This document shows positions 31,531 to 64,000 of a stretch of 64,000 nt of DNA, in pieces. The position numbers and the translations under genes are program-made. A model generated the notes under the pieces. It worked only from the letters and a program-made list of their open reading frames with translations, searched no databases and was not told where the DNA came from. Each line of letters begins with the position of its first letter. Position 1 is the first letter of the stretch. Origin of the DNA: Chlorops oryzae (lineage: Eukaryota; Arthropoda; Insecta; Diptera; Chloropidae); the NCBI GenBank assembly GCA_020466095.1, contig CM035806.1, positions 61,888,229-61,952,228 on the forward strand, in the 5' to 3' direction.

Positions 31531-32339
31531 AATCAAATAAGGAATAACATAACAAACCATCACTTAGCTCAACTATTTCGAGCATCATTAAATCAGTTAC
31601 TGCTTTTTGTTCAAGAAATTCAATTATGTTACTTCAATCTTTTCACTTTTCCGCGGCATTGTGAACTTGTTAATTTTTTAATACACTTCAGTGCTTACAA
31701 TTTTTATATTTCAAAATGAATCCCTGGCCGAACTATCAAATTTTTAAATTACACAAACTTCTCAAAGTAGCAAAGAAAGGCGTGTTCCCGAAAAGTGCCT
31801 TGTACTTTTTCGAGGCTTTCATGTTTTCATATTTTTACCTTTAAGGGAATACCCTTATTAAAGGCAAAACAGGGCAGTTAGAATTAAAAAGCTAGCTTCC
31901 CAGCCATAAACAAAGAGGTCTCATTCCCCATCCCGGCTTTCCAAAAAGAATTTTTTTTTTGCATTAAATGTTTGTTTTAAAGCTTTTTATTCCTGTAAGG
32001 TCTTAAAATCTATATCTAGCAAGGTGTCAACAAACCTGTTTTGGAGAAAAATTTAATCTTTTGTTATGTTTCCATTAGATCACATTTTTAGTATAAACTT
32101 TTGTTTTGGAACTTTTTTTAAGCGATAAAACTCGGGAAATGGGCGTTCCGAATTTCCTCCCATGACACAGTGGGATCGCATAATACATTTGAGTCTAAAA
32201 ACTGTACGGAGTGTTCTCCAGGACTTTTCAAAATAGAAAACTAAAAAGTCGTCCTTACAGTGTTTTTAGATGCCACCTATCGAAAAATCAACAAAACTTC
32301 AAAATCCCTTTCAGGGTGCCGTAGTCGGCAAGACTCTTA
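31531..32339. other. Left flank of the satellite array, no gene
   Basis: AT-rich unique-looking sequence; nothing supported. Confidence 0.4.
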
Positions 32340-34845: not shown

Positions 34846-36133
34846 CAAGTAAGAAAGCTAAAGTCGGTCAAGCCCGACTTTGAAATACCCAGCGTCCCGA
34901 CATTATGAGCGCACTATGTTTTTCTTCTCTATTTGTGGGCGTGGCAGTGGGAGGGCAACATAAATTATTTCCCTACACCTTTCATTCGCCTTGGTGAACC
35001 TATGTTGCGAATTCGAAGCTTCTACGCCTTTTACTTCGGAAGTTACGAAAAATCTTTATTTGTGGGCGTGGCATTGGGCGGGCCACAAAAAGTTTTTTCC
35101 TACACCTTTCATTCGCCTTGGTGAACCTATNNNNNNNNNNNNNNNNNNNNNNNNNNNNNNNNNNNNNNNNNNNNNNNNNNNNNNNNNNNNNNNNNNNNNN
35201 NNNNNNNNNNNNNNNNNNNNNNNNNNNNNNGTTGCGAATTCGAAGCTTCTACGCCTTTTACATCTGAAGTTACGAAAAAAATCTTTATTTGTGGGCGTGG
35301 CAGTGGGCGGGCCACAAAAAATTTTTTCGTAACCTTTCATTCCCCATTGGTGAACCTATGTTGCGAATTCGAAGCTTCTACGCCTTTTACTTCGAAGTTA
35401 CGAAAATCATTCATTTGTGGGCGTGGCAGTGGGTGGGCCCATAAAAAAAATTTTCCTACGACCTTTCATTCGCCTTGGTGCAAACCTATGTGCGAATTTG
35501 ATAGCTTCTACTCCTTTTACTTCGGAAGTTATGAAATCTCTATTTGTGGGCGTGGCAGTGGGCGGGCTATACAAATTTTTGTTCCTACACCTTTCATTTG
35601 CCTAAAAAGCTGTATGCTGCGAATTTGTAGCTTCTACGCCTTTTACTTCACAAGTTACGATAAGCCCTTATTTTTGGGCTTATTTGTGGGCGTGGCTTGA
35701 GGAGGGCGGCGTCCATTTTTTGCCAGGATATGTCCCTTTTCGTAGTTTACCAGCATCACCAAATATCAAATGGAATGTGTTGAGGTTCGCAAGTTACAAG
35801 CATTTTATTGAAAACACAATAAATTCATTTGTGGGCGTGGCAGTGGGCGGATGTCTCCCATTTTTACTTAGGATCATACTCGGACCCCGAATACATGTTG
35901 CCAAAATTCGACTTCATTGGTTCAGCCGTATTCGGAGGAGATCCGACCACGGACGGACGGACAGACGGACAGACGGACAGACGAAGACGACGGACGGACG
36001 ACAGACGACATGTCTAAATCGATTCAGTTTTTGATCCTGATCATTTCTATATATATTTGTCTATATCTCCGGAGCTTAATTCTCCCTGTTACAGGATTTG
36101 CACAAAACTAATATACCCGCTTACGCTGGGTAT
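34846..36133 (+). mobile_element. HINE/Helentron-like element, family 1, copy b, inside the satellite
   Basis: It starts CAAGTAAGAAAGCTAAAGTC with the hairpin AAAGTCGG..CCGACTTT and ATACCCAGCGT. It contains several ~127 bp units (GTTGCGAATTCGAAGCTTCT.., GTGGGCGTGGCAGTGGGCGG), then a GACGGACA microsatellite (35950-36010). It ends TATACCCGCTTACGCTGGGT followed by AT. ATACCCAGCGT and ACGCTGGGTAT form the subterminal inverted repeat. It interrupts a monomer at its A run, with no obvious target duplication, as expected for Helitron-type insertion. The internal N run means its true length is unknown. Confidence 0.75.
35131..35230. other. Assembly gap (100 N)
   Basis: Exactly 100 Ns between two near-identical 127 bp repeat units, so the number of units here is not known. 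Confidence 1.
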
Positions 36134-39100
36134 AAAAAAGCGAGCTCGAGGCGAGCTCGTTGCAAACGTTTCGAATTATTATCGCATTTCTCTTCGAATC
36201 GAATTGGAACGAACGAAAATACGATTAAAGCGCGAGCTCGCAAATTCTAAAATCCACGATAAAAAAAAAGCGAGCTCGAGGCGAGCTCGTTGCAAACGTT
36301 TCGAATTATTATGCATTTTCTCTTCGAATCGAACGTAAAATACGATAAAAGCGCGAGCTCCCAAATTCTAAAATCCACGATAAAAAAAAGCGAGCTCGAG
36401 GCGAGCTCGTTGCAAACGTTTCGAATTATTATGCATTTTCTCTTCGAATCGAACGTAAAATACGATAAAAGCGCGAGCTCCCAAATTCTAAAATCCACGA
36501 TAAAAAAAAGCGAGCTCGAGGCGAGCTCGTTGCAAACGTTTCGAATTATTATCGCATTTTCTCTTCGAATCGAACGTAAAATACGATAAAAGCGCGAGCT
36601 CGCAAATTCTAAAATCCACGATAAAAAAAAGCGAGCTCGAGGCGAGCTCGTTGCAAACGTTTCGAATTATTATCGCATTTTCTCTTCGAATCGAACGCAA
36701 AATACGATAAAAGCGCGAGCTCGCAAATTCTAAAATCCACGATAAAAAAAAGCGAGCTCGAGGCGAGCTCGTTGCAAACGTTTCGAATTCTTATCGCATT
36801 TGCTCTTCGAATCGAATTCGAATCGAACGCAAAATACGATTAAAGCGCGAGCTCGCAAATTCTAAAATCCACGATAAAAAAAAGCGAGCTCGAGGCGAGC
36901 TCGTTGCAAACGTTTCGAATTATTATAGCATTTTCTCTTCGAATCGAACGTAAAATACGATAAAAGCGCGAGCTCCCAAATTCTAAAATCCACGATAAAA
37001 AAAAGCGAGCTCGAGGCGAGCTCGTTGCAAACGTTTCGAATTTTATGCATTTTCTCTTCGAATCGAACGTAAAATACGATAAAAGCGCGAGCTCCAAATT
37101 CTAAAATCCACGATAAAAAAAGCGAGCTCGAGGCGAGCTCGTTGCAAACGTTTCGAATTTTATGCATTTTCTCTTCGAATCGAACGAAAATACGATAAAA
37201 GCGCGAGCTCCAAATTCTAAAATCCACGATAAAAAAAAAGGCGAGCTCGTTGCAAACGTTTCGAATTTTATCGCATTTTCTTCTTCGAATCGAACGCAAA
37301 ATACGATTAAAGCGCGAACTCGCATATTCTAAAATCCACGATAAAAAAAAGCGAGCTCGAGGCGAGCTCGTTGCAAACGTTTCGAATTATTATCGCATTT
37401 TCTCTTCGAATCGAACGTAAAATACGATAAAAGCGCGAGCTCGCAAATTCTAAAATCCACGATAAAAAAAGCGAGCTCGAGGCGAGCTCGTTGCAAACGT
37501 TTCGAATTATTATCGCATTTTCTCTTCGAATCGAATCGCTAAAAATACGATAAAAGCGCGAGCTCGCAAATTCTAAAATCCACGATAAAAAAAAGCGAGC
37601 TCGAGGCGAGCTCGTTGCAAACGTTTCGAATTATTATCGCATTTTCTCTTCGAATCGAACGTAAAATACGATAAAAGCGCGAGCTCGCAAATTCTAAAAT
37701 CCACGATAAAAAAAAGCGAGCTCGAGGCGAGCTCGTTGCAAACGTTTCGAATTATTATCGCATTTTCTCTTCGAATCGAACGTAAAATACGATAAAAGCG
37801 CGAGCTCGCAAATTCTAAAATCCACGATAAAAAAAAGCGAGCTCGAGGCGAGCTCGTTGCAAACGTTTCGAATTATTATAGCATTTTCTCTTCGAATCGA
37901 ACGTAAAATACGATAAAAGCGCGAGCTCGCAAATTCTAAAATCCACGATAAAAAAAAGCGAGCTCGAGGCGAGCTCGTTGCAAACGTTTCGAATTCTTAT
38001 CGCATTTTCTCTTCGAATCGAACGTAAAATACGATAAAAGCGCGAGCTCGCAAATTCTAAAATCCACGATAAAAAAAAGCGAGCTCGAGGCGAGCTCGTT
38101 GCAAACGTTTCGAATTATTATCGCATTTTCTCTTCGAATCGAACGTAAAATACGATAAAAGCGCGAGCTCGCATATTCTAAAATCCACGATAAAAAAAAG
38201 CGAGCTCGAGGCGAGCTCGTTGCAAACGTTTCGAATTATTATCGCATTTTCTCTTCGAATCGAACGTAAAATACGATAAAAGCGCGAGCTCGCAAATTCT
38301 AAAATCCACGATAAAAAAAAGCGAGCTCGAGGCGAGCTCGTTGCAAACGTTTCGAATTATTATCGCATTTTCTCTTCGAATCGAATCGATAAAAATACGA
38401 TAAAAGCGCGAGCTCGCAAATTCCTAAAATCCACGAATTAATATAATTTAAGAGCGAGCTCGAGGCGAGCTCGTTGCAAACGTTTCGAATTATTATCGTC
38501 ATTTTCTCTTCGAATTCGAACGTAAAATACGATAAAAGCGACGAGCTCGCAAATCTCTAAAATCCACGATAAAAATAAGCGAGCTCGGAGGCGTTAGCTC
38601 CGTTGCAAACGTTTCGAATCTCTTTATAGCATTTTCTCTTCGAAAGGTCGAACGTAAAATGTACGATACAAAGCGCGAGCTCGCAAATTCTAAAATGCCA
38701 CGATGACATTTTAAAGCGAGCTCCGAGGGCGTAGAAACTCAAAAGTTGCAAAACAGTTTTCAGAATTTTATCGCATTTTTCTTTCGAATACTTAAGGAAC
38801 GTAAATATTACGAATAATAAGCGCGAGCTCGCAAAGGGGTTCTAAAATTCCACGACCTAAAATAAAGCGAGCTCGAGGCGAGCTCGTTGCAAACGTTTCG
38901 AATTATTATCGCATTTTCTCTTCGAAGGTCGAACGTAAAATACGATAAAAGCGCGAGCTCGCAATGTTCTAAAATCCACGATAAAAAAAAGCGAGCTCGA
39001 GGCGAGCTCGTTGCAAACGTTTCGAATTATTATCGCATTTTCTCTTCGAATCGAACGTAAAATACGATAAAAGCGCGAGCTCGCATGTTCTAAAATCCAC

Positions 39101-39215
39101 GATAAAAAAAAGCGAGCTCGAGGCGAGCTCGTTGCAAACGTTTCGAATTCTTATCGCATTTTCTCTTCGAATCGAATTCGAATCGAACGCAAAATACGAT
39201 AAAAGCGCGATATCG
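36134..39215. repeat. Satellite array, right block (~25 monomers)
   Basis: Same monomer as 32340-34845. Several units at 37006-37290 are shortened (deletions at GAATTTTATGCA and a missing GCGAGCTCGA half). Units between about 38430 and 38830 carry many small insertions, after which clean units return. The array ends near a GCGCGATATCGCG palindrome. Confidence 0.97.
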
Positions 39216-39312
39216 CGAAAATTGCCTTCCGCGAATTCGAATTCGATTCGAATTCGTTTAATGGGATTCGCGCTCTACGAATTCGATTCGAATTCGATTC
39301 GAACTCGTTATC
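39216..39312. repeat. GAATTCG-rich palindromic simple repeat at array edge
   Basis: The words GAATTCG and GATTCGAATTCG are repeated many times, giving strong self-complementarity immediately after the last satellite monomer. Confidence 0.7.
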
Positions 39313-49821: not shown

Positions 49822-50240
49822 TGTAACGAGGTAAAATTTTGAGTAGCACAAAAATGTTATCCTCGTACATTTAATACAACCGTACCATACCAGTTAATAA
49901 AACCTTTTCACCCTTAGCCGGATTTTGTGCACCCTAACGAACTACTCCCATTATTATTTTTTTTTATTATTCATATTATATTTTGTATTTGTAATAAGAA
50001 AAAAAAAAAAACAACAACAAAAAAAAAAAAAAACAAAGAAAAGAAAAGAAGAATATGATTATTATTATTTGTATTATTATCACCAAGAGCAGAAAGCCAA
50101 ATTAGTATTATTATTGTTATTAAATTCAAAAAAAAAAAAAGAAAACAAAAAAAAAAACAAGACAAAACCAAATATATATATATATAATAAATAAACAAAA
50201 GGAAAATATATATGCATTAAATTTAGGGGAGAAAATATCT
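49822..50240 (+). repeat. LTR copy A, clean first part
   Basis: From TGTAACGAGGTAAAATTTTG to about 50240 this matches 59410-59822 almost base for base, including the AAAAACAACAACAAAA and TATATATATAATAAATAAAC tracts. The rest of the LTR in this copy is only recognisable through heavy noise (next entry). Open frames here (poly-Lys, poly-Tyr type) are artefacts of simple sequence. Confidence 0.9.
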
Positions 50241-51597
50241 CAAAATAAAATCAAAGGAAAGGAAGTTTAAAAAATCAAAAACATTTTTACGAAAAAAAAA
50301 ATTTTTCAGCGTTTTAAACCACCCCAAAACATAATATTTGACACGGAAAAACCGGCTTAACCTTCAAGGTCACCCAAACCAAACAAAAGAACCCCGGTTT
50401 TCACCCCAAAAAAGCAGAATAAATATTTCCCAGCGTTTTGAACCCCCCAAAACGCCGCAATATGTTCCGGCTTTTGAACCACCAATTAAACGGAAAATAA
50501 AAACCATTTCGGAATTTCGCTATAAAAAAGGCACCAAAAAACCAAAAAAGTTTAAAGTTTTAATTTCGAAATTTAAATAAACAAGGGGATACAAAAAGGC
50601 CTTTCACAAGGAATAGTTTTTTCACCCGCCGTTTTGGCACCCTAACGATACTCATAAAAATTTTTTATTCATAATTTTTGATTTTTTTACCCAACAAAAA
50701 AAAAAACCGGAAAATTGTTTTTTTTAATTTCAAGACAAGAAATTAAAAGTTTTTAATTCAAAAAAAAAGGAAAAAAAAAACGAACCAATTTTTTTTTTAA
50801 TTTCAAGATTTTATTGAAATTAAATTTAAGTACCTCCACTTTTCAAATTGGATTCAATAAAACCATACCGTAAGGGCCCCATTTGGAGCTACTTCCCGAA
50901 AAACATTTTCTCTTGCAAAAAGCGACCGGTCAGGCTCCCAAGGTCCCCATTTCCCTCTGATTTTAAAGCCGGTTTGCACGGCCACATTTTCGCCAAGGAA
51001 TATTTCCGGAGCCGTTTTTTTGCCACGGCACCCCGCACCAGCAATATTGTTTGGGGAGCGTTTCCGGCCTTGAGTCAGGAATGCGGGACTATACCCGGCC
51101 CACAGCGGATTGAGCTTTTATTTGGAATACTCGCCCGTGTTTGGGTTGTTTTCGGAGGGAGCATTTCTTTATGGTGCGATTTGCCCGCTCCGGGGATTTT
51201 CCTGCGGTTTATCTGTCCTTTTGTTCTCCTATTCCCCAGGAAATTTGTGAATTTTTCCTGAATGCGGGTTGCCGTTTATTCAGGGAACCCATACCTGGGA
51301 ATTCTTTCCGTACACCTTTTGGCGGATCAGTTTTCTGGCGGATGGGGGCTTTTAATTTAGAAACTGAATAACTTTTTCCCCTGGTACCTCCCCACGTCAC
51401 AATGGAAACCAATGGATAAAAACGATTGGCTTTTTTGGTGTCCGGCAAACCATTTGCGTGGCAATGCGTTTACAAATTTTTTTTCTTTTCTTTTTAGATT
51501 AAATTCTGATCGGGACTTAAATTTTTGGCGAACAATGATATCTGGAATGCGCCGAAAATATTCGTTTCGGCTAGTTCAAATCCCAAAAGTGACTGTT
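50241..51597 (+). other. Corrupted version of LTR end and antisense integrase leader
   Basis: This stretch is alignable to 59822-61590 but with very frequent substitutions, indels and homopolymer expansion. For example, CAATATTGTTTGGGGAGCG at 51040 corresponds to ATAATTGTTTGGGGAGTCG at 60884, and GTGCGATTTGCCCGCTCC is shared. It runs to the block that begins the capsid-like frame (AGTTCAAATCCCAAAAGTGA near 51570). The clean sequence then restarts at 51598 from GGCCTTGAGTCAGGAATGCG, so the segment is represented twice. It most likely comes from unpolished gap filling. Confidence 0.8.
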
Positions 51598-51970
51598 CGG
51601 CCTTGAGTCAGGAATGCGGGACTATACCCTGTGCTCTCACTTATGCTGGTATTGATTGCTAGTGTTAGTTCTGGAATGAGCTCGTCCCAGTGTTTGTGGT
51701 TGTTTTCTGTGTATTGGGCCAGCATTGTCTTTATGGTGCGATTTGCCCGCTCCGTGGGATTTTCCTGCGGTGTGTAGGGTGCTGTCCTCTGGTGTGTTAC
51801 TCCTAGTTGCGCCAGGAAATTTGTGAATTTCTTGCTCGTGAACTGCGTGCCGTTGTCCGTTACTAGTGTCGTAGGGACACCATACCTGGCGATGATTCTT
51901 TCTCGTAGCACCTTTATGGCGGAGTCAGTTGTTGCTGTGCGGAGTGGGGCAATTTCTACCCATTTAGAAA
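51598..51970 (-). pseudogene. Antisense integrase fragment, copy A
   Basis: Near-identical to the 3' part of the antisense block in copy B (60910-61282). On the minus strand it encodes the integrase core segment with TDNGTQF and TPQENPTERANRTIK, so it is inverted relative to the element's own pol at 55679. It ends where homology to pol stops (ATTTAGAAA). Downstream are about 170 bp of leader with a T-rich acceptor-like tract, then the capsid-like frame. Confidence 0.9.
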
Positions 51971-52187
51971 CGTAGAATATACTTTTCTCCCGTGGTGACT
52001 GGCGATCCCCACGTACAGCAAGCTGAGCAACACAATGCCGAGTGAAGAAACAGATTGGCAGTTTCTTCCATGGTGTCCGGCGAACACCATGTAATGCAAG
52101 CTGAGCATATGCGTTTACTAAATGCATTTTTTTCTTTTTTTTTAGATCTATAATTAAAACTGAGTACGAGGACATTAAATAATTAAC

Positions 52188-55100
52188 ATGGCAGAACAAT
52201 CAGATGCATCAATAGGAATAGCGCCAGAAAATAGTTCAAGTTTCGAAGCTAGTTCAAATCCCAAAAGTGACAATGAAAAATCAAGTTCTTATATTAAAGA
52301 GTGGTTAAATTCACCACCATCTGTGGTCGGAGTCGCCATACGCTTCCGACTATCCTTCCGGCAAAGACGTAGTCAGAAAAGTTGGCGTTAACACAACGCA
52401 ATACACAACCTTCTCCTCAGTGACTTCATCGTACATAACCATGTGGGAAACAGTAAAATCGTCTCAGAGTTATACACCTGTTCAAAATCCATTGCAGTTA
52501 GTGTCCACCGAAGAACGATATAAGGCTTCCGAACCCACACAGGAGCAGTTGTCAAAAGTAGCCGAACGCATTCAAAAAGGTTACGAACAAGGTTTATACG
52601 TTTTCACGCGGTATGAGGGATTTCTCACTAATCATCAACACTACGCCAAACTGTTGAAATTGCGAACTATGGGATCATCCGTTGGCGTCAACCTTAATTG
52701 TGTTGTATCAATCCAACCTGAAATTTCTGACCCCAATCAAGATACATCGTCCCCATCCAATTCAGGTGGATCCAGCACTTCTCCCGATAATCCAGGCCGT
52801 AGTATTGACATCCCATCGAGTGAACAACCAGTCCCTGCTGCAAGTCAGGCACAACCATTGGTTGCAAAAAACAAAAATTTCTTACGTGCCTATCAGGGTG
52901 GTGACATCATCTATGGCACCTGAAACTGAAGAATCACTGGGCTCCCACCGTTCGCAAGCATTCACGATAATTTCTGAGACACTGAGTGAAAACACTCCTT
53001 CGTTTGTTAGATCATCTATTAAGAATCTCTTAATGAAGGACCCTTCCATCGGATAGGCCATCGCAAATGGTATGAGCAAAGATTCTTCAACAATTTACGA
53101 TGTTGCTCCAATGATGAGAAACCTGCTTCTTGCCCATTCAATATCCGGCCAGTCTGCTTCCGTTGACCCCACCACCGCTCAGTTTATGCGCAACACAATA
53201 ATGCAGTCAGGTCAGGTTAACATTTCTCGCGTTCCATATGTACGTCGTACTTATACATTACTAGCCACACCACTCGACATGTTTTTGGCAATGACGCAGG
53301 GAAACAGACTTAGTGTTCCACTCGCTCCCCCGTTTAGTTCCGAGCGTCTTGATGCGGACTGGATAGCTGTTCCTGTCGATAACACAATATTGGCCGGTGG
53401 CTACTTGCGCGAATACATAGCTTGTTTCTTCGATTCTGGGCTGACATATGGTACTGCCTCTTACGTCCAACAATATACTACAGATGCCCCAGATCTACTC
53501 AACGGTAAGAGCACTAACATGCCTGCATCTACAACTGTCCACATCGCTGGACCTAAGCATGTTATGCTGGTTTTTACGGAAATGGCTGCTTTGGATGCCC
53601 ATCTTCAACGGAATTGTTCGGTGTGACCATTCCAATATACAAGGCACTCAGCAAGTTGTTCCGGTTGACTTTGGTGCAGTGTGGGTTGAACATTACACGT
53701 CGGCAAATTTATTAAATATACAACATTACCTGTCACTCGCCTGGGATGTTTTGCGGAAGGTGGCCACCGTGGAGGGAACAGCTGCCCGAGCATTGGGACG
53801 TTCATCCGAAATGATACTAGCAAACCGTCCGGGACTATACATCCACCCCAACAAAGAACAGAAAGGATTTAATAACAATGTCCCATTGTCAGGAGCATTT
53901 CAGCTTTCTTCATACTCCCATGACAGTTTTGTTCCAATCACTGCAAATAGTCGCTTTCTCAGTATAACCAAAAACCACTTTTCTCAAAATGGAATCGCTG
54001 AATTAAGAGAGTTAATATATGGTTATAACGCTGCGTCCCTGTCATCGGCTCATTTACCCCCGTCCGGATAAGCCAAAATAGCATTCGATAATGGTGGCAA
54101 CCCTGTTATTGTAGATAGAATTCCATCTCCTTCCAATTCTACGCCAATGTATTACGTTGGAACCACCAGTTCGATGGTCCGAGTCGCAACTATGGTTGGA
54201 CTAATGGATAGAGGTAGTTCGGAGTATTCATTCTATAATGTTGCGGCGATTTCCTCTTGGCTCCATCAAATATCTGTGGCCACGCTTCTCAACTTCTCGA
54301 CCTACTTGCACAACAACGATACACCAACCCGCGATTGGGCAGGGTACATCGATATATGGCCGTCAATATCTAGGCGTGGTGAGTTGGTCGATATGAAGTG
54401 CAACTTAGTCGGGAGATTTTTCGGTCACATAGTGGCTTATGACATGCACGAGAGGGGCGAAATTGGGACATGGCGTGGATACCCGCATATTATTTCGGCC
54501 TGTACCCATACAACACCCAGGAGTGGTGGTCGAATAGTCCAGCTCCATTCTATGCAACTATTCAATGGCTCGAGAAGTTAAAGCTGTCTAGCTCGCCACC
54601 CCAAATAATGCCATTAACTGTCACGCTAGCCTACAGTCAACCCATAGAATGTACCCCGCTTAACACAGAAGCGATAAAAATTAAGACATATATAACAACA
54701 ACTAACGATGCTGAGAATTTTTACCACAAATACTAGATATAACACCAGGCCTCCAAATTCCGACACGATTCAAAGGATCGTGGGTTGAACAATACCAGTT
54801 TCTTTCGATGCACGCAACTGGGAGACTGCCAGCTAATAGACGACTACTATGCAGCACTACACCGACAGAAGGAGTATATGTGTTAAATAACGAAAACATA
54901 TTTAAGAGAAAGTTGTATATAATAGACAGTGATGCTACTCGTTCTGCTTGGGAATACACGAAATTCATAGTATCAAGCATCGACTTTCCTGATCCACCAT
55001 CAAGCAACAGTAAACCACTTACGTCTGTGAAGCGAATTGGAGGTGATGGACCGACAACATCGAAGAAGGCAAAGTCTGACGGACCACAACATCGACCAAA

Positions 55101-55582
55101 CCACCTGATGGAAAAACCGCTGCCTCAAAAAACTCAACAAACGCGGGCGCCGCAGACAAAGAACCGAGCAACGCGACGTCCAGTGCGACGACATCAAATG
55201 CGCAGGAGACTCCTCACAAGGAAGTCACTCCCGCAACACCGAATGTATAAACAACTGCGATGGACAGTACTGTGGGGTATGGGTCCCACAATCCGGGACG
55301 GAGGGATATTCGGGACGAGGCGAGAGATTCCGAGTCCCCTTCCTTAGGTCGCCTCCTGGTCCCATAAACCTAGACCCTACACCTAACCTGGCCCACAACC
55401 CCCCACGGGCAGGGATCCTGGGGGGAGACCCCTGGGTTGAAGGTTTCACGTTTCTGGGGCGATGTACCACGATTTGGCCAAACCGGCCGATCTGGATTGT
55501 TCGTGGCCTATTTACCTACATTACAGATCCATCATTATATGCGGCCACCATCAAGTTGCCAGCGAACTACTCAGATATTTAA
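52188..55582 (+). pseudogene. Virus-like capsid gene, copy A, frame-broken
   Basis: This is the homologue of 61503-64000 and extends beyond what that copy shows. Relative to copy B it has small indels near 52320-52340, 52868-52880, 53590, 53635, 54457 and 54734, so the frame changes repeatedly. It also has the two in-frame stops that copy B has. The part after 54682, not visible in copy B, contains a compact segment (54735-55020) and a polar Lys/Arg/Gln-rich stretch (55020-55250), and closes at a TAA at 55580-55582. It has no retroviral gag hallmarks: no major-homology-like region and no CCHC knuckle. Length and composition suit a dsRNA-virus coat protein (toti-like), inferred by general resemblance only. 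The junction to retrotransposon sequence lies between about 55350 and 55680. The indels may be sequencing errors. Confidence 0.6.
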
Positions 55583-55678
55583 CTCAAATACAAGCACTGT
55601 CTAAGAAAGAAGGAATACAGATGGAACCAAGCAAGCCGTGACGCATATCCTAACCATTCAAATAGCCTAGGGCCGAGT

Positions 55679-58429
55679 GTGCAGGTCATCCCACTCATCG
55701 TGCTGCCAGACATGCAGGAGGGCATGCTCCTAGGAATGGATTTCCTCAGCAGGGTAGGCACCTTAATGGACATTGGTGGTAATATGGTTTGGATAGCCGA
55801 AACCAACGACGAAGAAATAGAAGACTCCAACAACACCCTACATCTACAGACAGAAATTACCAAGCGCACTACATCAGAGCCAGCGATCAAAGAAATCCAC
55901 CGAGAAGCCAAGGAACAATTCCCAACACAAACGAAGCCGCAAACGAGGGAAGAAACGAGCGCCAACGCTGCCCTGCATCTACAGGTAACTGATCACGAAG
56001 ACAGCCCACCAGAACCGAAACGCATAGAAGCTACGAGAGAGACACCAGAACAGTTCCTTGCACGTGAGCTTCGAGAATTTGAAAAGATTCAAGGTCCATC
56101 CAACATCGCGAAACACCAAATCATCATGAAAGACCCTCGACCATTTAAGCAACGGTATTTCCCAAAGAACCCTGTGATGCAAGAAGCCATAAATAAAGAA
56201 ATCAACGAATTAATCCGATTAGACTGTATTGAGCCATCCCATAGTCCATATAGTTCGTCAGTGGTCATGGTTCATAAGAAAAATGGCAAATGGAGGTTAT
56301 GCTTGGACTTTCGACAGCTCAACGAGAAGTCAGTACAGGATGCTTACCCACTACCTCGCATTAGCTACATACTTGGACGTCTAAAAGAGGCAACATACAT
56401 CAGCAGTTTAGATTTAAAAAATGGCTATTGGCAGATCCCGCTTGAGGAGGGTAGCAAACAGTTCACCGCCTTCACGGCACCAGGAAGAGGTCTATATCAA
56501 TGGAAGGTGATGCCCTTTGGTCTGCATTCCGCCCCGGCCACGTTCCAACGAGCCCTGGACAGCGTTATTGGCCCAGAGTTGGAACCGCACGCGTTTGCAT
56601 ATCTAGACGACATAATAGTAACTGGAAACTCACTAGAAAACTATATGGAAAACCTACAGGAAGTCTTTAAGCGACTAAAAGCGGCCAAACTCCGCATTAA
56701 CCCCGATAAGTGCAAGTTCTTTCAACAGGAAATCAAATACCTAGGACACCTGGTGACCACACAAGGGATACACACGGACCCAGATAAGATAGCTGCAATC
56801 CAAGAATTGACACCCCCAACTAACGTAAAGGAGCTCCGCCGAGTCCTGGGCATCGCCAGTTGGTATCGCAGATTTGTACCCGATTTCTCAAAAATTGTAC
56901 ACCCCATGACGTCGCTCCTCAAAAAGGGCCAACGGTGGAAGTGGACACTGGAGCAACAGGACGCATTTGACCTTTTAAAACAAAAGCTGACTGAAGCCCC
57001 GGTGTTAACATGCCCAGACTTCTCAAAACCATTTACCCTTCAAACAGACGCAAGTCACTATGGATTGGGGGCCGTGCTAACCCAAGTGATTGAAGGCCAG
57101 GAGCGGGTGATCGCCTATGACAGCAGACACTTGAACCAGGCAGAACTCAACTATTCCACGACCGAAAAGGAATGCCTGGCAATCGTTTGGGGCATCCGGA
57201 AGATGAGGCACTACCTCGAAGGCTATAAATTCACCGTCATTACGGATCACCTAGCACTCAAATGGTTAAACTCCATAGACAATCCTACGGGAAGAATAGC
57301 TCGCTGGGCCCTTGAGCTGCAACAATACACGTTCGACATCAAGTACCGACGGGGCAAGTACAACATCATCGCCGACGCTTTATCCAGACAACCCCTAGAC
57401 AAAGTATGCCAAATATCCACTGAAGAATCAGCTGCCCCTGAACCAACGGATTGGACCAGCAAACGAATAAGGACGGTCCTCAAACAACCTCAGAAGTATG
57501 CAGACTACCAGGTTATTAATGGAAATCTCTACCGATATTTACCGGACATAGGAGGAGACACGGACCATTTTGTATGGAAATTATGCGTACCAAAAGACGA
57601 TCGAGCGAGAGTCCTGCAAGAGAATCATGACGACCCCACAGCCGGCCATCTCGGGGTTAAGAAGACCACCAGTCGCATCTCCCGACGATACTTTTGGCCA
57701 GGTTTCCACCGAGACATTAGAAATTACGTCAAGAAATGCTTGAGCTGTCAAAAGTATAAAAACCAACAACAGAAACAAGCAGGTCACATGAGGACACAAG
57801 TTGCCGAAGAACCATGGGCAGTGTTATGTGCAGACTTTATGGGACCTCTCCCTCGGTCATCACATGGAAATGTGTACCTGCTAGTCCTGTTTGACAAATT
57901 TTCTAAATGGGTAGAAATTGCCCCACTCCGCACAGCAACAACTGACTCCGCCATAAAGGTGCTACGAGAAAGAATCATCGCCAGGTATGGTGTCCCTACG
58001 ACACTAGTAACGGACAACGGCACGCAGTTCACGAGCAAGAAATTCACAAATTTCCTGGCGCAACTAGGAGTAACACACCAGAGGACAGCACCCTACACAC
58101 CGCAGGAAAATCCCACGGAGCGGGCAAATCGCACCATAAAGACAATGCTGGCCCAATACACAGAAAACAACCACAAACACTGGGACGAGCTCATTCCAGA
58201 ACTAACACTAGCAATCAATACCAGCATAAGTGAGAGCACAGGGTATAGTCCCGCATTCCTGACTCAAGGCCGCGAACCACGACTCCCCAAACAATTATAT
58301 GACGAAAAGAATCCGGACCTAAGCGGAGAACAGATGACCGTCGCGCAGAAAACCAATCGGCTCCAGGAAATATTCAACTTGGTACGCCAAAATCAAGTCC
58401 GCGCCAGTCAAGAACAAAGCCGGCATTAA
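55679..58429 (+). CDS. pol: Ty3/gypsy-type pol: protease tail, RT, RNase H, integrase
   Basis: The frame is open from 55583; the first 916 codons shown begin at a GTG, so there is no proper start here. Order: a protease C-terminal motif LLGMDFL (residues ~19-25, no DTG/DSG active site); RT with DFRQLNE, SSLDLKNGYWQIP and the catalytic YLDD at about residue 307; RNase H with TDAS (~457), TEKE (~493) and ITDH (~521). Integrase follows with an HHCC finger (HDDPTAGHLG..CLSCQ, ~649-692) and DDE residues at ADF (~718), TDNG (~778) and the Glu of NPTERAN (~814). The enzymes would copy element RNA to DNA and insert it. The frame stops at 58427-58429; a TAT is found at the same place in the antisense copy at 60616-61282. 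The preceding gag and the protease N-terminus are missing and replaced by the capsid-like sequence. Confidence 0.95.
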   Translation: MQVIPLIVLPDMQEGMLLGMDFLSRVGTLMDIGGNMVWIAETNDEEIEDSNNTLHLQTEITKRTTSEPAIKEIHREAKEQFPTQTKPQTREETSANAALHLQVTDHEDSPPEPKRIEATRETPEQFLARELREFEKIQGPSNIAKHQIIMKDPRPFKQRYFPKNPVMQEAINKEINELIRLDCIEPSHSPYSSSVVMVHKKNGKWRLCLDFRQLNEKSVQDAYPLPRISYILGRLKEATYISSLDLKNGYWQIPLEEGSKQFTAFTAPGRGLYQWKVMPFGLHSAPATFQRALDSVIGPELEPHAFAYLDDIIVTGNSLENYMENLQEVFKRLKAAKLRINPDKCKFFQQEIKYLGHLVTTQGIHTDPDKIAAIQELTPPTNVKELRRVLGIASWYRRFVPDFSKIVHPMTSLLKKGQRWKWTLEQQDAFDLLKQKLTEAPVLTCPDFSKPFTLQTDASHYGLGAVLTQVIEGQERVIAYDSRHLNQAELNYSTTEKECLAIVWGIRKMRHYLEGYKFTVITDHLALKWLNSIDNPTGRIARWALELQQYTFDIKYRRGKYNIIADALSRQPLDKVCQISTEESAAPEPTDWTSKRIRTVLKQPQKYADYQVINGNLYRYLPDIGGDTDHFVWKLCVPKDDRARVLQENHDDPTAGHLGVKKTTSRISRRYFWPGFHRDIRNYVKKCLSCQKYKNQQQKQAGHMRTQVAEEPWAVLCADFMGPLPRSSHGNVYLLVLFDKFSKWVEIAPLRTATTDSAIKVLRERIIARYGVPTTLVTDNGTQFTSKKFTNFLAQLGVTHQRTAPYTPQENPTERANRTIKTMLAQYTENNHKHWDELIPELTLAINTSISESTGYSPAFLTQGREPRLPKQLYDEKNPDLSGEQMTVAQKTNRLQEIFNLVRQNQVRASQEQSRH

Positions 58430-58672
58430 AATCTACGACGCAGAGAATGGAGGCCACACTTGGGAAACCTGATCCTGGTGAAGACGCATTTTTTGTCCAA
58501 CGCAGAAAATAGCTTTGCGGCAAAGCTAGCTCCAAAGTACGAGGGGCCATATACGGTACTGGGTTTTGATTCGCCAGTCATAATCCGATATAAAGTGAAC
58601 GGCCAGGCAAAGACTGCTCACATTAGCCAACTCAAACCTTACGCCCACCGCGGACCCAGCAACGACGACTAG
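58430..58672 (+). CDS. Integrase C-terminal segment after premature stop
   Basis: It continues in the same frame as pol directly after the stop at 58427-58429, and ends at TAG 58670-58672. It reads GNLILVKTH..KLAPKYEGPYTVL, the small SH3-like C-terminal domain of gypsy integrases, ending in HISQLKPYAHRG. Translated separately it would be a 70-residue fragment from the internal ATG at 58460. The antisense duplicate reads through the stop position, so the break is specific to this copy or is a sequencing error. Confidence 0.85.
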   Translation, partial: NLRRREWRPHLGNLILVKTHFLSNAENSFAAKLAPKYEGPYTVLGFDSPVIIRYKVNGQAKTAHISQLKPYAHRGPSNDD

Positions 58673-58763
58673 GACCAACACGACTTATTAACCCATCCTA
58701 GATAGTTCACCGACCAAATCATATAAGCCATATTTCTTTTAATCCTAACAGTAACCTACAAAG

Positions 58764-59414
58764 ATGGAAAAATTTGCCCGGACCAGGCTACAATACCTGG
58801 AACATCTAAAAAGTGAAGCTGCGGCTAGACGTAAGGGAAAGTTTATTCCCCACCATCCTCGTTTCGAGAAAAAGGCCCCGGTTAATACGATGTACCGGCT
58901 CACCGTCTCACCTCCAAAGAAGTACAAGAAAGGGAAGCCGAAATCCGATCCCCTACAGGGATTGTCCTACCGGGAGCGGTGCCGGGTATTGTTCGGGGAC
59001 TCCGAGTCGAGTGCAGACGAAGAAGCCACCGAAACTCCAACCAAAGCTCCTCTACCTCAACACAGCCCTCCAGCACCGAGGATCTCCGAAAATCAACAAA
59101 CCCCCGGTTGCCAAAGGGTAGCAACTCGACCAAGGCTGATCACAACCGCCCCGAAATACCAACCAACACCACAAGCGGCCGCCCATCCGGAAGACATCCT
59201 AGCGCTCGACACCGACGAGTCAGAAATGGAGTCACCCCAGGAGCCCAGAAGCACTGTCCAGACTGTCCTGGACGACATGATCCAGAAGTGGAAACAGCAC
59301 GGGCGACGAATGCGCTGTCTACGAATCCTTGAAGGCACCACCTACAAATTCGGGGTGTCAAAACAAGGAAAGGGCACCTTCGAAAAGGTTCCCCGAGGAA
59401 AGGAGGGGATGTAA
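58764..59414 (+). CDS. Third ORF before the 3' LTR, unknown function
   Basis: A 216-codon frame with an ATG start, 91 bp after the pol stop, ends at TAA 59412-59414, just inside the LTR. The N-terminal part is basic (EAAARRKGK, PPKKYKKGKPK), the middle is Pro/Thr/Gln-rich and disordered, and the C-terminal ~60 residues (TVQTVLDDMIQKWKQHGRRM..) look folded. No signal peptide or transmembrane helix is visible, so this is not an env glycoprotein. In position it corresponds to env/ORF3 of errantivirus-type elements. A nucleic-acid-binding or accessory role is only a guess from charge. The clean, uninterrupted frame suggests it was under selection until recently. Confidence 0.65.
   Translation: MEKFARTRLQYLEHLKSEAAARRKGKFIPHHPRFEKKAPVNTMYRLTVSPPKKYKKGKPKSDPLQGLSYRERCRVLFGDSESSADEEATETPTKAPLPQHSPPAPRISENQQTPGCQRVATRPRLITTAPKYQPTPQAAAHPEDILALDTDESEMESPQEPRSTVQTVLDDMIQKWKQHGRRMRCLRILEGTTYKFGVSKQGKGTFEKVPRGKEGM
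59395..59409 (+). promoter_or_regulatory. Polypurine tract of the LTR element
   Basis: GAGGAAAGGAGGGGA lies directly before TGTAACGAGG, the start of the LTR. This is the expected primer site for plus-strand synthesis and fixes the LTR left border. It also overlaps the third ORF. Confidence 0.85.
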
Positions 59415-60380
59415 CGAGGTAAAATTTTGAGTAGCACAAAAATGTTATCCTCGTACATTTAATACAACCGTACCATACCAGTTAATAAAACCTTTTCACC
59501 CTTAGCCGGATTTTGTGCACCCTAACGAACTACTCCCATTATTATTTTTTTTTATTATTCATATTATATTTTGTATTTGTAATAAGAAAAAAAAAAAACA
59601 ACAACAAAAAAAAAAAAAAAACAAAGAAAAGAAAAGAATATGATTATTATTATTTGTATTATTATCACCAAGAGCAGAAAGCCAAATTAGTATTATTATT
59701 GTTATTAAATTCAAAAAAAAAAGAAAACAAAAAAAAAACAAGACAAAACCAAATATATATATATATAATAAATAAACAAAAGGAAAATATATATGCATTA
59801 AATTTAGGGGAGAAAATATCTCCACCCTAATCATAAGTCGATGGACGTTCAACATCAAAACATACGTACAAAGAAACCAATTTCAGCAGCTTACATATCC
59901 ACCGCATCAAAACATACATACCTGCAATCAGCGAGAAACCGGCTTCAATGGCTTCAAGGATACACACCATCCAAACATACATGATTCCCACGCCGTTTTG
60001 CACACGGCACCAAACACTCGCAAGCAATATGATTCCCGAGCCGTTTTGCACACGGCACCAAACACGCACAAGCAATATGATTCCCGAGCCGTTTTGCACA
60101 CGGCACCAATCACACGCAGCAATAAACCAGTTCGGAATGCGTGCGACTATACGAAAGGCACCAACACAAGCAAGGAACCAGTTTGAACCGCTTTTAACTA
60201 TGCGAAATCCACTAACACAAGCGCCGCCGACTGACTATAAAAGGCGCTGCATCGCGAAGGAAAAGTCAGTTTCTGTTCAGCTCGCGCCGTGCCAGCATCG
60301 CCAAGTACATCGGAGTGGACTCAGTAAAAGCGAAGTTTATTCAAGTAAGTCTTTTGAATTCTCCTTTATTCCCACAATTG
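59410..60380 (+). repeat. LTR copy B (shared by two units)
   Basis: Begins TGTAACGAGG after the polypurine tract. It contains simple A/T tracts (59540-59790), three GCCGTTTTGCACACGGCACC repeats spaced 45-55 bp (about 59990-60110), and a promoter at 60236-60270. The right border is not certain: around 60375-60380 (TTCCCACAAT) or somewhat later, because a 112 bp direct repeat follows. A primer-binding site complementary to a known tRNA was not identified. Confidence 0.75.
60236..60270 (+). promoter_or_regulatory. Pol II core promoter in the LTR
   Basis: TATAAAA at 60236-60242 is followed by the arthropod initiator TCAGT at 60266-60270, placing +1 at 60268, about 32 bp from the TATA start. Spacing and motifs suit an active insect promoter. 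Confidence 0.75.
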
Positions 60381-60615
60381 GATTCAGTGATATATATACC
60401 TGAATGCCAGGTTGTCTCTGTGCTTTTAATTTCAATGATTCATACTTGAAATTAAACAGCTTTAACCCTGTCACCACCACGTCTTCGCAATTGGATTCAG
60501 TGATATATACCTGAGTACCAGATTGTTTCTGCGCTTTTAATTTCAATGATTTATACTTGAAATTAAACAGCTTTAACCCTGTCACCTCCACGTTTTCACA
60601 ATTGGATTCAGTGAT
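60376..60615 (+). repeat. ~112 bp direct repeat, two full units plus a start
   Basis: CAATTGGATTCAGTGATA recurs at about 60378, 60489 and 60600. The units share TGCCAGGTTGT/TACCAGATTGT, GCTTTTAATTTCAATGATT and AACAGCTTTAACCCTGTCAC. The third occurrence is cut off by the antisense integrase at 60616. Confidence 0.85.
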
Positions 60616-61282
60616 AAACCCAGTACCGTATATGGCCCCTCGTACTTTGGAGCTAGCTTTGCCGCAAAGCTATTTTCTGCGTTGGACAAAAAATGCGTCT
60701 TCACCAGGATCAGGTCTCCCAAGTGTGGCCTCCATTCTCTGCGTCGTAGATTATAATGCCGGCTTTGTTCTTGACTGGCGCGGACTTGATTTTGGCGTAC
60801 CAAGTTGAATATTTCCTGGAGCCGATTGGTTTTCTGCGCGACGGTCATCTGTTCTCCGCTTAGGTCCGGATTCTTTTCGTCATATAATTGTTTGGGGAGT
60901 CGTGGTTCGCGGCCTTGAGTCAGGAATGCGGGACTATACCCTGTGCTCTCACTTATGCTGGTATTGATTGCTAGTGTTAGTTCTGGAATGAGCTCGTCCC
61001 AGTGTTTGTGGTTGTTTTCTGTGTATTGGGCCAGCATTGTCTTTATGGTGCGATTTGCCCGCTCCGTGGGATTTTCCTGCGGTGTGTAGGGTGCTGTCCT
61101 CTGGTGTGTTACTCCTAGTTGCGCCAGGAAATTTGTGAATTTCTTGCTCGTGAACTGCGTGCCGTTGTCCGTTACTAGTGTCGTAGGGACACCATACCTG
61201 GCGATGATTCTTTCTCGTAGCACCTTTATGGCGGAGTCAGTTGTTGCTGTGCGGAGTGGGGCAATTTCTACCCATTTAGAAA
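60616..61282 (-). pseudogene. Antisense integrase fragment, copy B
   Basis: 667 bp, the reverse complement of 57900-58566 of the element's own pol, near-identical. On the minus strand an open frame of about 285 codons (61439-60582) includes integrase core motifs TDNGTQF and TPQENPTERANRTIK, then the C-terminal domain start (HLGDLILVKTH), lacking the stop found at 58427. It lacks the first catalytic Asp and the zinc finger, so it cannot be an enzyme. Together with the sense pol it makes a 667 bp inverted repeat in a genomic transcript. Its borders (ATTTAGAAA and AAACCCAGTA) show no duplication. Confidence 0.92.
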
Positions 61283-61502
61283 CGTAGAATATACTTTTCT
61301 CCCGTGGTGACTGGCGATCCCCACGTACAGCAAGCTGAGCAACACAATGCCGAGTGAAGAAACAGATTGGCAGTTTCTTCCATGGTGTCCGGCGAACACC
61401 ATGTAATGCAAGCTGAGCATATGCGTTTACTAAATGCATTTTTTTCTTTTCTTTTTAGATCTATAATTAAAACTGAGTACGAGTGACATTAAATAATTAA
61501 TC

Positions 61503-62375
61503 ATGGCAGAACAATCAGATGCATCAATAGGAATAGCGCCAGAAAATAGTTCAAGTTTCGAAGCTAGTTCAAATCCCAAAAGTGACAATGAAAAATCAAG
61601 TTCTTATATTAAAGAGTGGTTAAATTCACCACCATCTGTGGTCGGTAGTCGCCACTACGCGTTGCGCGACTATCCTTCCGGCAAAGACGTAGTCAGAAAA
61701 GTTGGCGTTAACACAACGCAATACACAACCTTCTCCTCAGTGACTTCATCGTACATAACCATGTGGGAAACAGTAAAATCGTCTCAGAGTTATACACCTG
61801 TTCAAAATCCATTGCAGTTAGTGTCCACCGAAGAACGATATAAGGCTTCCGAACCCACACAGGAGCAGTTGTCAAAAGTAGCCGAACGCATTCAAAAAGG
61901 TTACGAACAAGGTTTATACGTTTTCACGCGGTATGAGGGATTTCTCACTAATCATCAACACTACGCCAAACTGTTGAAATTGCGAACTATGGGATCATCC
62001 GTTGGCGTCAACCTTAATTGTGTTGTATCAATCCAACCTGAAATTTCTGACCCCAATCAAGATACATCGTCCCCATCCAATTCAGGTGGATCCAGCACTT
62101 CTCCCGATAATCCAGGCCGTAGTATTGACATCCCATCGAGTGAACAACCAGTCCCTGCTGCAAGTCAGGCACAACCATTGGTTGCAAAAACAAAAATTTC
62201 TTACGTGCCTATCAGGGTGGTGACATCATCTATGGCACCTGAAACTGAAGAATCACTGGGCTCCCACCGTTCGCAAGCATTCACGATAATTTCTGAGACA
62301 CTGAGTGAAAACACTCCTTCGTTTGTTAGATCATCTATTAAGAATCTCTTAATGAAGGACCCTTCCATCGGATAG
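61503..62375 (+). CDS. Virus-like capsid gene, copy B, N-terminal frame
   Basis: 290 codons starting at an ATG with A at -3 (TTAATCATGG context), 45 bp after the predicted splice acceptor. The first ~45 residues are Ser/Asn/Glu-rich and flexible; residues ~50-180 look folded; ~180-225 is a Pro/Ser/Asp linker. The frame ends at TAG 62373-62375, but the same frame continues open immediately after. It resembles dsRNA-virus (toti-like) coat proteins in character, and I have no database match to confirm this. In a virus it would form the particle shell; in this element it stands where gag should be. Copy A has the same sequence with indels. Confidence 0.6.
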   Translation: MAEQSDASIGIAPENSSSFEASSNPKSDNEKSSSYIKEWLNSPPSVVGSRHYALRDYPSGKDVVRKVGVNTTQYTTFSSVTSSYITMWETVKSSQSYTPVQNPLQLVSTEERYKASEPTQEQLSKVAERIQKGYEQGLYVFTRYEGFLTNHQHYAKLLKLRTMGSSVGVNLNCVVSIQPEISDPNQDTSSPSNSGGSSTSPDNPGRSIDIPSSEQPVPAASQAQPLVAKTKISYVPIRVVTSSMAPETEESLGSHRSQAFTIISETLSENTPSFVRSSIKNLLMKDPSIG

Positions 62376-62390
62376 GCCATCGCAAATGGT

Positions 62391-63392
62391 ATGAGCAAAG
62401 ATTCTTCAACAATTTACGATGTTGCTCCAATGATGAGAAACCTGCTTCTTGCCCATTCAATATCCGGCCAGTCTGCTTCCGTTGACCCCACCACCGCTCA
62501 GTTTATGCGCAACACAATAATGCAGTCAGGTCAGGTTAACATTTCTCGCGTTCCATATGTACGTCGTACTTATACATTACTAGCCACACCACTCGACATG
62601 TTTTTGGCAATGACGCAGGGAAACAGACTTAGTGTTCCACTCGCTCCCCCGTTTAGTTCCGAGCGTCTTGATGCGGACTGGATAGCTGTTCCTGTCGATA
62701 ACACAATATTGGCCGGTGGCTACTTGCGCGAATACATAGCTTGTTTCTTCGATTCTGGGCTGACATATGGTACTGCCTCTTACGTCCAACAATATACTAC
62801 AGATGCCCCAGATCTACTCAACGGTAAGAGCACTAACATGCCTGCATCTACAACTGTCCACATCGCTGGACCTAAGCATGTTATGCTGGTTTTTACGGAA
62901 ATGGCTGCATTTGGATGCCCATCTTCAACGGAATTGTTCGGTGTGACCATTCCAATATACAACGGCACTCAGCAAGTTGTTCCGGTTGACTTTGGTGCAG
63001 TGTGGGTTGAACATTACACGTCGGCAAATTTATTAAATATACAACATTACCTGTCACTCGCCTGGGATGTTTTGCGGAAGGTGGCCACCGTGGAGGGAAC
63101 AGCTGCCCGAGCATTGGGACGTTCATCCGAAATGATACTAGCAAACCGTCCGGGACTATACATCCACCCCAACAAAGAACAGAAAGGATTTAATAACAAT
63201 GTCCCATTGTCAGGAGCATTTCAGCTTTCTTCATACTCCCATGACAGTTTTGTTCCAATCACTGCAAATAGTCGCTTTCTCAGTATAACCAAAAACCACT
63301 TTTCTCAAAATGAAATCGCTGAATTAAGAGAGTTAATATATGGTTATAACGCTGCGTCCCTGTCATCGGCTCATTTACCCCCGTCCGGATAA
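62391..63392 (+). CDS. Virus-like capsid gene, copy B, central frame
   Basis: 333 codons from ATG 62391, in the same frame as the preceding segment and separated from it only by the TAG and five codons. It is a globular, hydrophobic-balanced protein with aromatic-rich stretches and no CCHC knuckles, which argues for a viral shell domain rather than retroviral gag. It ends at TAA 63390-63392, again followed at once by the same open frame. Both stops occur in the context GGA-TAR-GCC and both are present in copy A, so they predate the duplication. Confidence 0.6.
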   Translation: MSKDSSTIYDVAPMMRNLLLAHSISGQSASVDPTTAQFMRNTIMQSGQVNISRVPYVRRTYTLLATPLDMFLAMTQGNRLSVPLAPPFSSERLDADWIAVPVDNTILAGGYLREYIACFFDSGLTYGTASYVQQYTTDAPDLLNGKSTNMPASTTVHIAGPKHVMLVFTEMAAFGCPSSTELFGVTIPIYNGTQQVVPVDFGAVWVEHYTSANLLNIQHYLSLAWDVLRKVATVEGTAARALGRSSEMILANRPGLYIHPNKEQKGFNNNVPLSGAFQLSSYSHDSFVPITANSRFLSITKNHFSQNEIAELRELIYGYNAASLSSAHLPPSG

Positions 63393-64000
63393 GCCAAAAT
63401 AGCATTCGATAATGGTGGCAACCCTGTTATTGTAGATAGAATTCCATCTCCTTCCAATTCTACGCCAATGTATTACGTTGGAACCACCAGTTCGATGGTC
63501 CGAGTCGCAACTATGGTTGGACTAATGGATAGAGGTAGTTCGGAGTATTCATTCTATAATGTTGCGGCGATTTCCTCTTGGCTCCATCAAATATCTGTGG
63601 CCACGCTTCTCAACTTCTCGACCTACTTGCACAACAACGATACACCAACCCGCGATTGGGCAGGGTACATCGATATATGGCCGTCAATATCTAGGCGTGG
63701 TGAGTTGGTCGATATGAAGTGCAACTTAGTCGGGAGATTTTTCGGTCACATAGTGGCTTATGACATGCACGAGAGGTGGCGAAATTGGGACATGGCGTGG
63801 ATACCCGCATATTATTTCGGCCTGTACCCATACAACACCCAGGAGTGGTGGTCGAATAGTCCAGCTCCATTCTATGCAACTATTCAATGGCTCGAGAAGT
63901 TAAAGCTGTCTAGCTCGCCACCCCAAATAATGCCATTAACTGTCACGCTAGCCTACAGTCAACCCATAGAATGTACCCCGCTTAACACAGAAGCGATAAA
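63393..64000 (+). CDS. Virus-like capsid gene, copy B, third frame segment, runs off window
   Basis: The same reading frame stays open for 202 codons from the TAA at 63390 to the window end. An internal ATG is at 63468. It is rich in Trp and Tyr (for example WRNWDMAW and YFGLYPYNTQEWW). The corresponding part of copy A is interrupted by a one-base loss near 54457, while this copy is uninterrupted. The gene should continue about 0.9 kb past the window, judging from copy A. Confidence 0.6.

What the first reader, a model, noticed from the sequence alone, without database searches (positions are those of the whole stretch)
49822..59409. LTR retroelement with a virus-like capsid gene where gag should be
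Seen: LTR, antisense integrase piece, ~3.4 kb virus-like coat frame, then protease tail-RT-RNase H-integrase, ORF3, polypurine tract, LTR. The gag gene and protease active site are absent, and the coat-like frame takes their place. Known: reverse transcriptases can switch templates between viral RNA and retrotransposon RNA, giving integrated fusions. Inference: here the fusion may have become a unit bounded by LTRs, a chimeric retroelement carrying a dsRNA-virus-type coat. If it moves, packaging by a non-retroviral shell would be new.
Basis: partly seen in the sequence, partly recalled or inferred. Interest (0 to 1): 0.88.

Follow-up and report, generated by a model that had tools for sequence, protein, structure and literature searches.

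The report
Virus coat captured by a retrotransposon
In this probably fly genome a jumping gene copied part of a totivirus-like RNA virus, including its coat gene, into itself where its own capsid gene should be; it is a well-preserved, broken, single-locus fossil of such a fusion, with no sign that the hybrid ever moved.

Summary
The 3-kb frame is the coat gene of a totivirus-like virus: nine other loci of the same genome hold coat-like sequence, and one (1026 open codons) shares an in-phase A-AAA-AAC slippery site and overlapping -1 frame and has an RdRP_4 polymerase downstream. The captured viral piece is 5' leader + coat + start of the polymerase frame. It joins the protease of a Ty3/gypsy element at window 55618; relatives of that element elsewhere in the genome (98-99% in a pol probe) carry gag there, so gag and the protease active site were replaced. 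On the other side an inverted piece of integrase separates virus from LTR. Against mobility: both LTR pieces stop inside the LTR's repeats, a second unit follows in tandem and breaks off in RT, the coat frame has two stops, viral and pol frames differ, and the LTR/integrase junction was found at one place. Bases 50242-51597 are faulty assembly. Best account: template switching by a retrotransposon reverse transcriptase, giving one endogenous viral element. Nearest precedent: a nodavirus polymerase in a gag-less Bel/Pao element (PMC5177903).

The parts
49822..50241 (+). Start of the LTR of unit 1, clean part
   Evidence: TG start; 97.6% to 59407-59822; 97% to parent LTR in L028
50242..51597 (+). 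Low-quality rendering of LTR rest + antisense integrase + viral leader; assembly artefact, not a real feature
   Evidence: Global alignment to 59822-61586, mostly deletions
51598..51970 (-). Inverted integrase fragment, unit 1
   Evidence: 373 of 373 bases complementary to 57900-58272
51972..52187 (+). Viral 5' leader, unit 1
   Evidence: Counterpart of 61284-61502; homologous to C3:17.01 Mb
52188..55250 (+). Coat frame, unit 1, broken by indels and by the same two stops as unit 2
   Evidence: ORF pieces; 11 deleted bases, 1 inserted and 1 substitution relative to unit 2 over 51598-54678
55127..55133 (+). A AAA AAC slippery site
   Evidence: Read in sequence; coat-frame phase tested in unit 2 at L004:451 and in L039
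55134..55617 (+). Start of the viral polymerase (-1) frame; broken by indels in this unit
   Evidence: Open in unit 2, L004:433-993; 75% aa identity to L039 over 150 and 85% to L047 over 85 residues; L047 holds RdRP_4
55618..58429 (+). Ty3/gypsy protease tail-RT-RNase H-integrase; virus/retroelement junction at 55618; frame stops at 58427 and goes on in the same frame to 58672
   Evidence: Homology to related loci starts at 55618 in 8 of 9 fetched loci, 55620 in the ninth; Pfam; ORFs
58755..59414 (+). ORF3 (219 aa)
   Evidence: Open frame, no Pfam match; lies in the stretch that matches L028
59411..60615 (+). Truncated LTR between the units, with two 111-bp repeats
60616..61282 (-). Inverted integrase fragment, unit 2
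   Evidence: 665 of 667 bases complementary to 57900-58566; 3-base overlap at the LTR junction
61284..61502 (+). Viral 5' leader, unit 2
   Evidence: Homologous to C3:17.01 Mb and C4:2.81 Mb loci
61503..64000 (+). Coat frame, unit 2, one frame with stops at 62373 and 63390; runs on to L004:574

Best explanation
A non-retroviral endogenous viral element made by template switching. While copying the RNA of a gag-bearing Ty3/gypsy element from its 3' end, reverse transcriptase reached the protease region, jumped onto the plus strand of a totivirus-like RNA inside the start of the polymerase frame, and copied back through the coat gene to the viral 5' end. It then copied a stretch of integrase in inverted sense (perhaps from its own first-strand cDNA), jumped into the repeats of the LTR and finished there; the product entered the genome at one place. 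Shown: the parts, the junctions, the parent-type elements, the kinship of the coat to a locus with a viral polymerase, the single location in this assembly. Inferred: the order of jumps, the template of the inverted piece, and the joining enzyme. The tandem second unit is either a later duplication or an assembly product. As it stands it is a fossil; whether it is transcribed or gives small antiviral RNAs is open.
For: Homology to the element family starts at 55618 in 8 of 9 fetched related loci, 55620 in the ninth; the viral relative L047 departs from the window's viral frame at the same codons. Gag homology in 9 of 9 of these loci, partial in L033; PF03732 + CCHC and a protease domain in L030, DTGA in the printed frames of L028, L030, L032; no match of L028's gag to the window or the next 20 kb. 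Viral kinship: 13 coat-protein matches in the genome, a 1026-codon open homologue with the same in-phase heptamer and -1 frame, RdRP_4 at E 1.8e-11 downstream of it; 9 RdRP_4 matches genome-wide, 0 of 14 control genomes. The coat evolved as a protein: pN 0.12 against pS 0.75 over 416 codons to C3:17.01 Mb, 0.23 against 0.83 over 1010 codons to L039. Homology to C3:17.01 Mb starts at 61284, and the neighbour there is a LINE. Single place.
Against: No coat homologue outside this genome: none in two protein searches or four viral-contig scans, nothing significant in Pfam or PDB; the polymerase piece of L047 also found nothing in viral contigs or PDB. So the virus family rests on RdRP_4 and gene order, and the polymerase domain is not in the window. 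The single-sequence fold was uninformative (pLDDT 30.7). The leader is no more stable than shuffles (z 0.14). The -1 frame's codon score is only 2.4 standard deviations above its null, and 2 other canonical heptamers lie in phase inside the coat frame. The inverted integrase needs an extra step. The tandem and the faulty 50242-51597 stretch leave room for misassembly.
Confidence: 0.87

Rival explanations
1. A mobile chimeric retroelement in which the viral coat took over packaging from gag.
For: Coat lies in the gag place; LTR-derived ends; RT-RNase H-integrase frame open over 948 codons.
Against: One place only against six other copies at 98-99% in the pol probe, all with gag homology; LTRs truncated; protease active site missing; two stops in the coat frame of both units; viral and pol frames differ; an in-frame stop before the integrase tail.
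Confidence: 0.03
2. The junctions are assembly chimeras of an ordinary gypsy copy and a separate endogenous virus.
For: 50242-51597 is clearly faulty, copy 1 is poorly polished, and the units are near-identical (99.5% over 3.1 kb, 97.6% over the next 1.5 kb).
Against: The junctions at 55618 and 61284 have sharp edges in clean sequence and recur in both units; the inverted integrase is hard to get by misassembly. If the units are one sequence assembled twice, the recurrence is not independent.
Confidence: 0.08
3. The virus first integrated by itself, and the gypsy parts came beside it later by recombination or nested insertion.
For: Nine other loci with coat-like sequence show that integration is common here.
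Against: The virus begins at its 5' end and stops mid-frame at the protease; a nested insertion would be expected to leave a gypsy copy with gag, and none matches here.
Confidence: 0.06
4. The long frame is an unusual gag or a host gene.
For: No database match for it.
Against: Parent gag is a different open frame; slippery site, -1 frame and RdRP_4 beside a homologue.
Confidence: 0.02

Closest known systems
eBxnv-1, nodavirus polymerase inside a Bel/Pao element, Bursaphelenchus xylophilus (PMC5177903; abstract, Results and Discussion sections read)
   Same: RNA-virus gene between LTRs, no gag seen, one copy of the fusion, copy-choice recombination proposed
   Different: There the polymerase of a plus-strand virus in a degenerate Bel/Pao element; here the coat with leader and frameshift region of a totivirus-like virus in a Ty3/gypsy element whose gag-bearing relatives are present, so junctions are sharp; plus an inverted integrase piece
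[quoted passage not shown] abstract and passages seen)
   Same: Toti-like coat and polymerase fragments in insect genomes, many in Diptera
   Different: The passages seen do not describe one inside an LTR element; the word 'LTR' occurs 0 times in the main text
Anakin, Pao elements with a chuvirus glycoprotein (PMC7642597; passages seen)
   Same: Non-retroviral virus gene inside LTR elements
   Different: Glycoprotein in multi-copy elements that keep gag; here a coat instead of gag, one locus, broken
Complex LTR elements sharing an LTR by template switching, Triticeae (PMC1950507; abstract seen)
   Same: Two units sharing one LTR
   Different: No virus mentioned in the abstract; here the tandem may be assembly or later duplication

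Membership tests
Non-retroviral endogenous viral element (toti-like) | Sequence kin to an RNA-virus gene in the nuclear genome | tested here: met
   Coat homologue with -1 frame and RdRP_4; window contig is 173 Mb
Non-retroviral endogenous viral element (toti-like) | Kin to an exogenous virus | tested here: inconclusive
   Coat: none in the held collections; polymerase piece: none in viral contigs. How many animal RNA viruses these hold was not tested
Totivirus-like gene plan | Coat frame followed by a -1 frame behind a slippery heptamer | tested here: met
Totivirus-like gene plan | Polymerase domain in that -1 frame | tested here: inconclusive
   Not in the window, where the frame is cut at 55618; RdRP_4 read in L047 behind the homologue
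Totivirus-like gene plan | Coat fold | tested here: inconclusive
   pLDDT 30.7 for one 338-aa piece without an alignment
Ty3/gypsy (Metaviridae) element | RT-RNase H-integrase order | tested here: met
   Ty3 Gag-Pol is the best PDB match, E 1e-115
Ty3/gypsy (Metaviridae) element | gag and protease active site | tested here: not met
Ty3/gypsy (Metaviridae) element | Two complete LTRs | tested here: not met
Mobile chimeric retroelement | More than one insertion | tested here: not met
Mobile chimeric retroelement | Target-site duplication | not tested
   The right end breaks off in RT, so there is no second LTR end to compare

The most novel reading that the evidence does not exclude
The totivirus-like coat once served as the shell for the chimera's RNA, so that a retrotransposon was packaged by a non-retroviral, dsRNA-virus-type capsid, and the present locus is its decayed remnant.
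Probability: 0.03. Interest if true: 0.9.

Novelty: new variant of a known kind. Interest (0 to 1): 0.5.

Why it matters
How RNA viruses without a reverse transcriptase enter genomes is mostly inferred from decayed remains. Here both kinds of parent can be read in one genome: gag-bearing elements 98-99% identical in the pol probe, and related viral insertions, one with an open coat frame and a polymerase. So the break points can be placed closely. The same viral 5' end meets an LTR element's integrase at one locus and a LINE at another, in opposite sense, which makes 'template jumps at viral RNA ends' a testable account. It also shows how near evolution comes to giving a retrotransposon a foreign capsid, without showing that it worked.

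Tried and rejected
Considered and dropped: coat as gag (parent gag is another protein); an alternative genetic code for the two stops (the pol frame is open over 948 codons in the standard code); a spliced leader from a donor-like site near 60348 to the pyrimidine-rich tract before the coat start (such a tract stands before the coat in other loci too, so I claim no intron); a specially stable viral leader (z 0.14; Rfam gave 3 matches, all below their cut-offs). A structure search was not run: the only model was unusable, and by its description the folding tool does not take loci from the genome search, so a model from the homologues was not attempted. No primer-binding site was assigned. Literature: 7 searches listed no totivirus-type coat in the gag place of an LTR element; listings were capped at 20 per search and most subscription papers are not held.
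Full report
WHAT IS THERE. The window lies at C1:61888229-61952228 of a 442-Mb assembly; C1 is 173 Mb long. Among the best 120 of 2368 relatives of the pol frame, those with a named organism are Drosophila species, Musca autumnalis and bees, at 46-64% identity, so the host is an insect, probably a fly; this was not established further.

The region holds two units in tandem. Unit 1: LTR start (49822), a faulty stretch (50242-51597), an inverted integrase fragment, a viral leader, the coat frame, the start of a second viral frame, then protease tail-RT-RNase H-integrase, ORF3 and a truncated LTR (59411-60615). Unit 2: inverted integrase, viral leader and coat again, 99.5% identical over 3.1 kb, going on outside the window through the viral frame and the protease (97.6% over 1.5 kb) and ending in RT near C1:61953768. 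The faulty stretch aligns to 59822-61586; its second part does so almost wholly by deletions (543 matches, 154 deleted bases, 3 substitutions), its first part also has 56 substitutions, 37 of them to A; then the same sequence starts again. That is how unpolished long-read sequence looks (my judgement). Between the units, over 51598-54678, there are 11 deleted bases, 1 inserted base and 1 substitution, so the units are very young duplicates or one sequence assembled twice.

THE COAT FRAME IS VIRAL. By itself it matches nothing held: nothing significant in Pfam or PDB, nothing among 5.8 billion proteins for the two pieces tried of three, nothing in IMG/VR. Inside the genome it does. A 601-base DNA probe finds a third place at 70%; a protein probe finds 13 matches, which I count as nine loci outside the window, two of them short (35 residues). 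At C3:8.83 Mb the coat is open over 1026 codons. Near the end of the coat frame of unit 2 there is an A AAA AAC heptamer in coat-frame phase (L004:451) and an overlapping -1 frame of 186 codons. A Markov control gives a frame of 180 codons or more in 17 of 2000 random 600-mers; the -1 frame has the best of the three codon scores after the coat stop, but only 2.4 standard deviations above the null; and of 8 canonical heptamers found in the coat frame 3 are in phase, two of them in its interior. What lifts this above chance is the C3 homologue: the same heptamer in the same phase, and a -1 frame 75% identical in protein over 150 residues. Its continuation in L047 holds RdRP_4 (PF02123) at 1.8e-11, 44.1 bits against a cut-off of 22. 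The genome has 9 RdRP_4 matches, none in the window, and 0 of 14 control genomes have any. Coat plus polymerase is the gene content of totiviruses (PMC10636211 passage); the -1 frameshift as their habit is recalled. Against C3:17.01 Mb the coat has pN 0.12 and pS 0.75 over 416 codons, against L039 0.23 and 0.83 over 1010: these lineages diverged as working proteins, most simply as viruses before they entered the genome.

THE VIRAL 5' END. The homology with C3:17.01 Mb begins at 61284 with GTAG; next to that base is inverted integrase here and a LINE with endonuclease and RT domains there, in opposite sense. The C4:2.81 Mb locus starts within about 15 bases of the same place. Of six coat loci with upstream sequence held (C1, C3:17.01, C4:2.81, C3:8.83, C1:62.01, C2:72.40) these three keep a recognisable leader; the other three have no significant match to it at the leader's place. 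Three hairpins, taken from the fold of the window's leader, pair in both sequences of the C1/C3 comparison, 42 of 42 cells, against 33-52% when slid; but there is only one change (U-A to U-G), so covariation is not shown, and the energy of the leader is no better than that of shuffles.

THE RETROELEMENT PARENT. A pol probe gives 41 matches (40 of 204 candidates scored), 7 of them at 98-100% over the whole probe, the window included. I fetched nine loci. Homology to the window starts at 55618 in 8 and at 55620 in the ninth, a sister at about 75%. All nine have gag homology upstream, one of them (L033) partial. In L028 gag lies in a 443-codon open frame; in L030 it carries Retrotrans_gag and a CCHC knuckle, with an aspartyl protease in the next frame, and DTGA is seen in L028, L030 and L032. 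Neither the gag protein nor the gag/protease DNA of L028 matches the window or the 20 kb after it. So the virus stands in place of gag and the first part of protease. Parent LTRs contain many more of the 111-bp repeats and run at least 2.5 kb in L028 and 2.0 kb in L033; here they stop after two repeats, with a 3-base overlap to the inverted integrase. Of 185 matches to a probe of that junction, the window alone spans it among those listed; the list is cut at the weak end. The same count for the virus/integrase junction was not obtained.

WHAT FOLLOWS. The chimera has no gag, no protease active site, no complete LTR in the sequence read and no primer-binding site that I could assign; its coat frame has two in-frame stops in both units; the viral -1 frame and the pol frame differ; pol has an in-frame stop at 58427 before the integrase tail. 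Some of these breaks may be sequencing faults, since unit 1 is poorly polished. It is at one locus. LTR flanks are what reverse transcription gives to any recombinant cDNA (recalled), so they do not show that the hybrid moved as a unit.

COMPARISON. The kind is known: an RNA-virus gene inside a gag-less LTR element in a nematode, with copy-choice recombination proposed (PMC5177903). Arthropod toti-like insertions are common (PMC10636211), and chuvirus glycoproteins sit in Pao elements (PMC7642597). New here, as far as seven literature searches show, is a totivirus-type coat with leader and frameshift region in the gag place, with both kinds of parent legible in the same genome.

Noticed in passing
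L007:1-4335 and L006:9148-9995 (C3:17.01 Mb): A related viral insertion (leader + part of the coat, 72-76% DNA identity) is joined at the viral 5' end to a LINE in opposite sense, as if the LINE reverse transcriptase jumped onto the 3' end of a viral minus strand.
   Followed up: partly
L039 and L047 (C3:8827188-8833500): A coat homologue open over 1026 codons, followed by a -1 frame and an RdRP_4 polymerase: a long, little-decayed endogenous totivirus-like insertion.
   Followed up: partly
window 61284-61502: The viral leader contains two copies of a 46-base motif (80% alike), also in the C3 and C4 relatives; function unknown.
   Followed up: partly
window 61440-61459; L007, L038, L039: A pyrimidine-rich tract ending in AG stands shortly before the coat start in these four loci; it could serve as a splice acceptor after integration.
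   Followed up: no
window 62373 and 63390: The two in-frame stops of the coat frame lie in nearly the same nine-base context; chance, base-calling bias and mutation were not told apart.
   Followed up: no
window 32337-39219: Large tandem arrays with a period near 120 bases in two blocks.
   Followed up: no
genome-wide: A sister gypsy family at about 75% DNA identity in pol, many copies; the one fetched (L034) has gag homology.
   Followed up: partly
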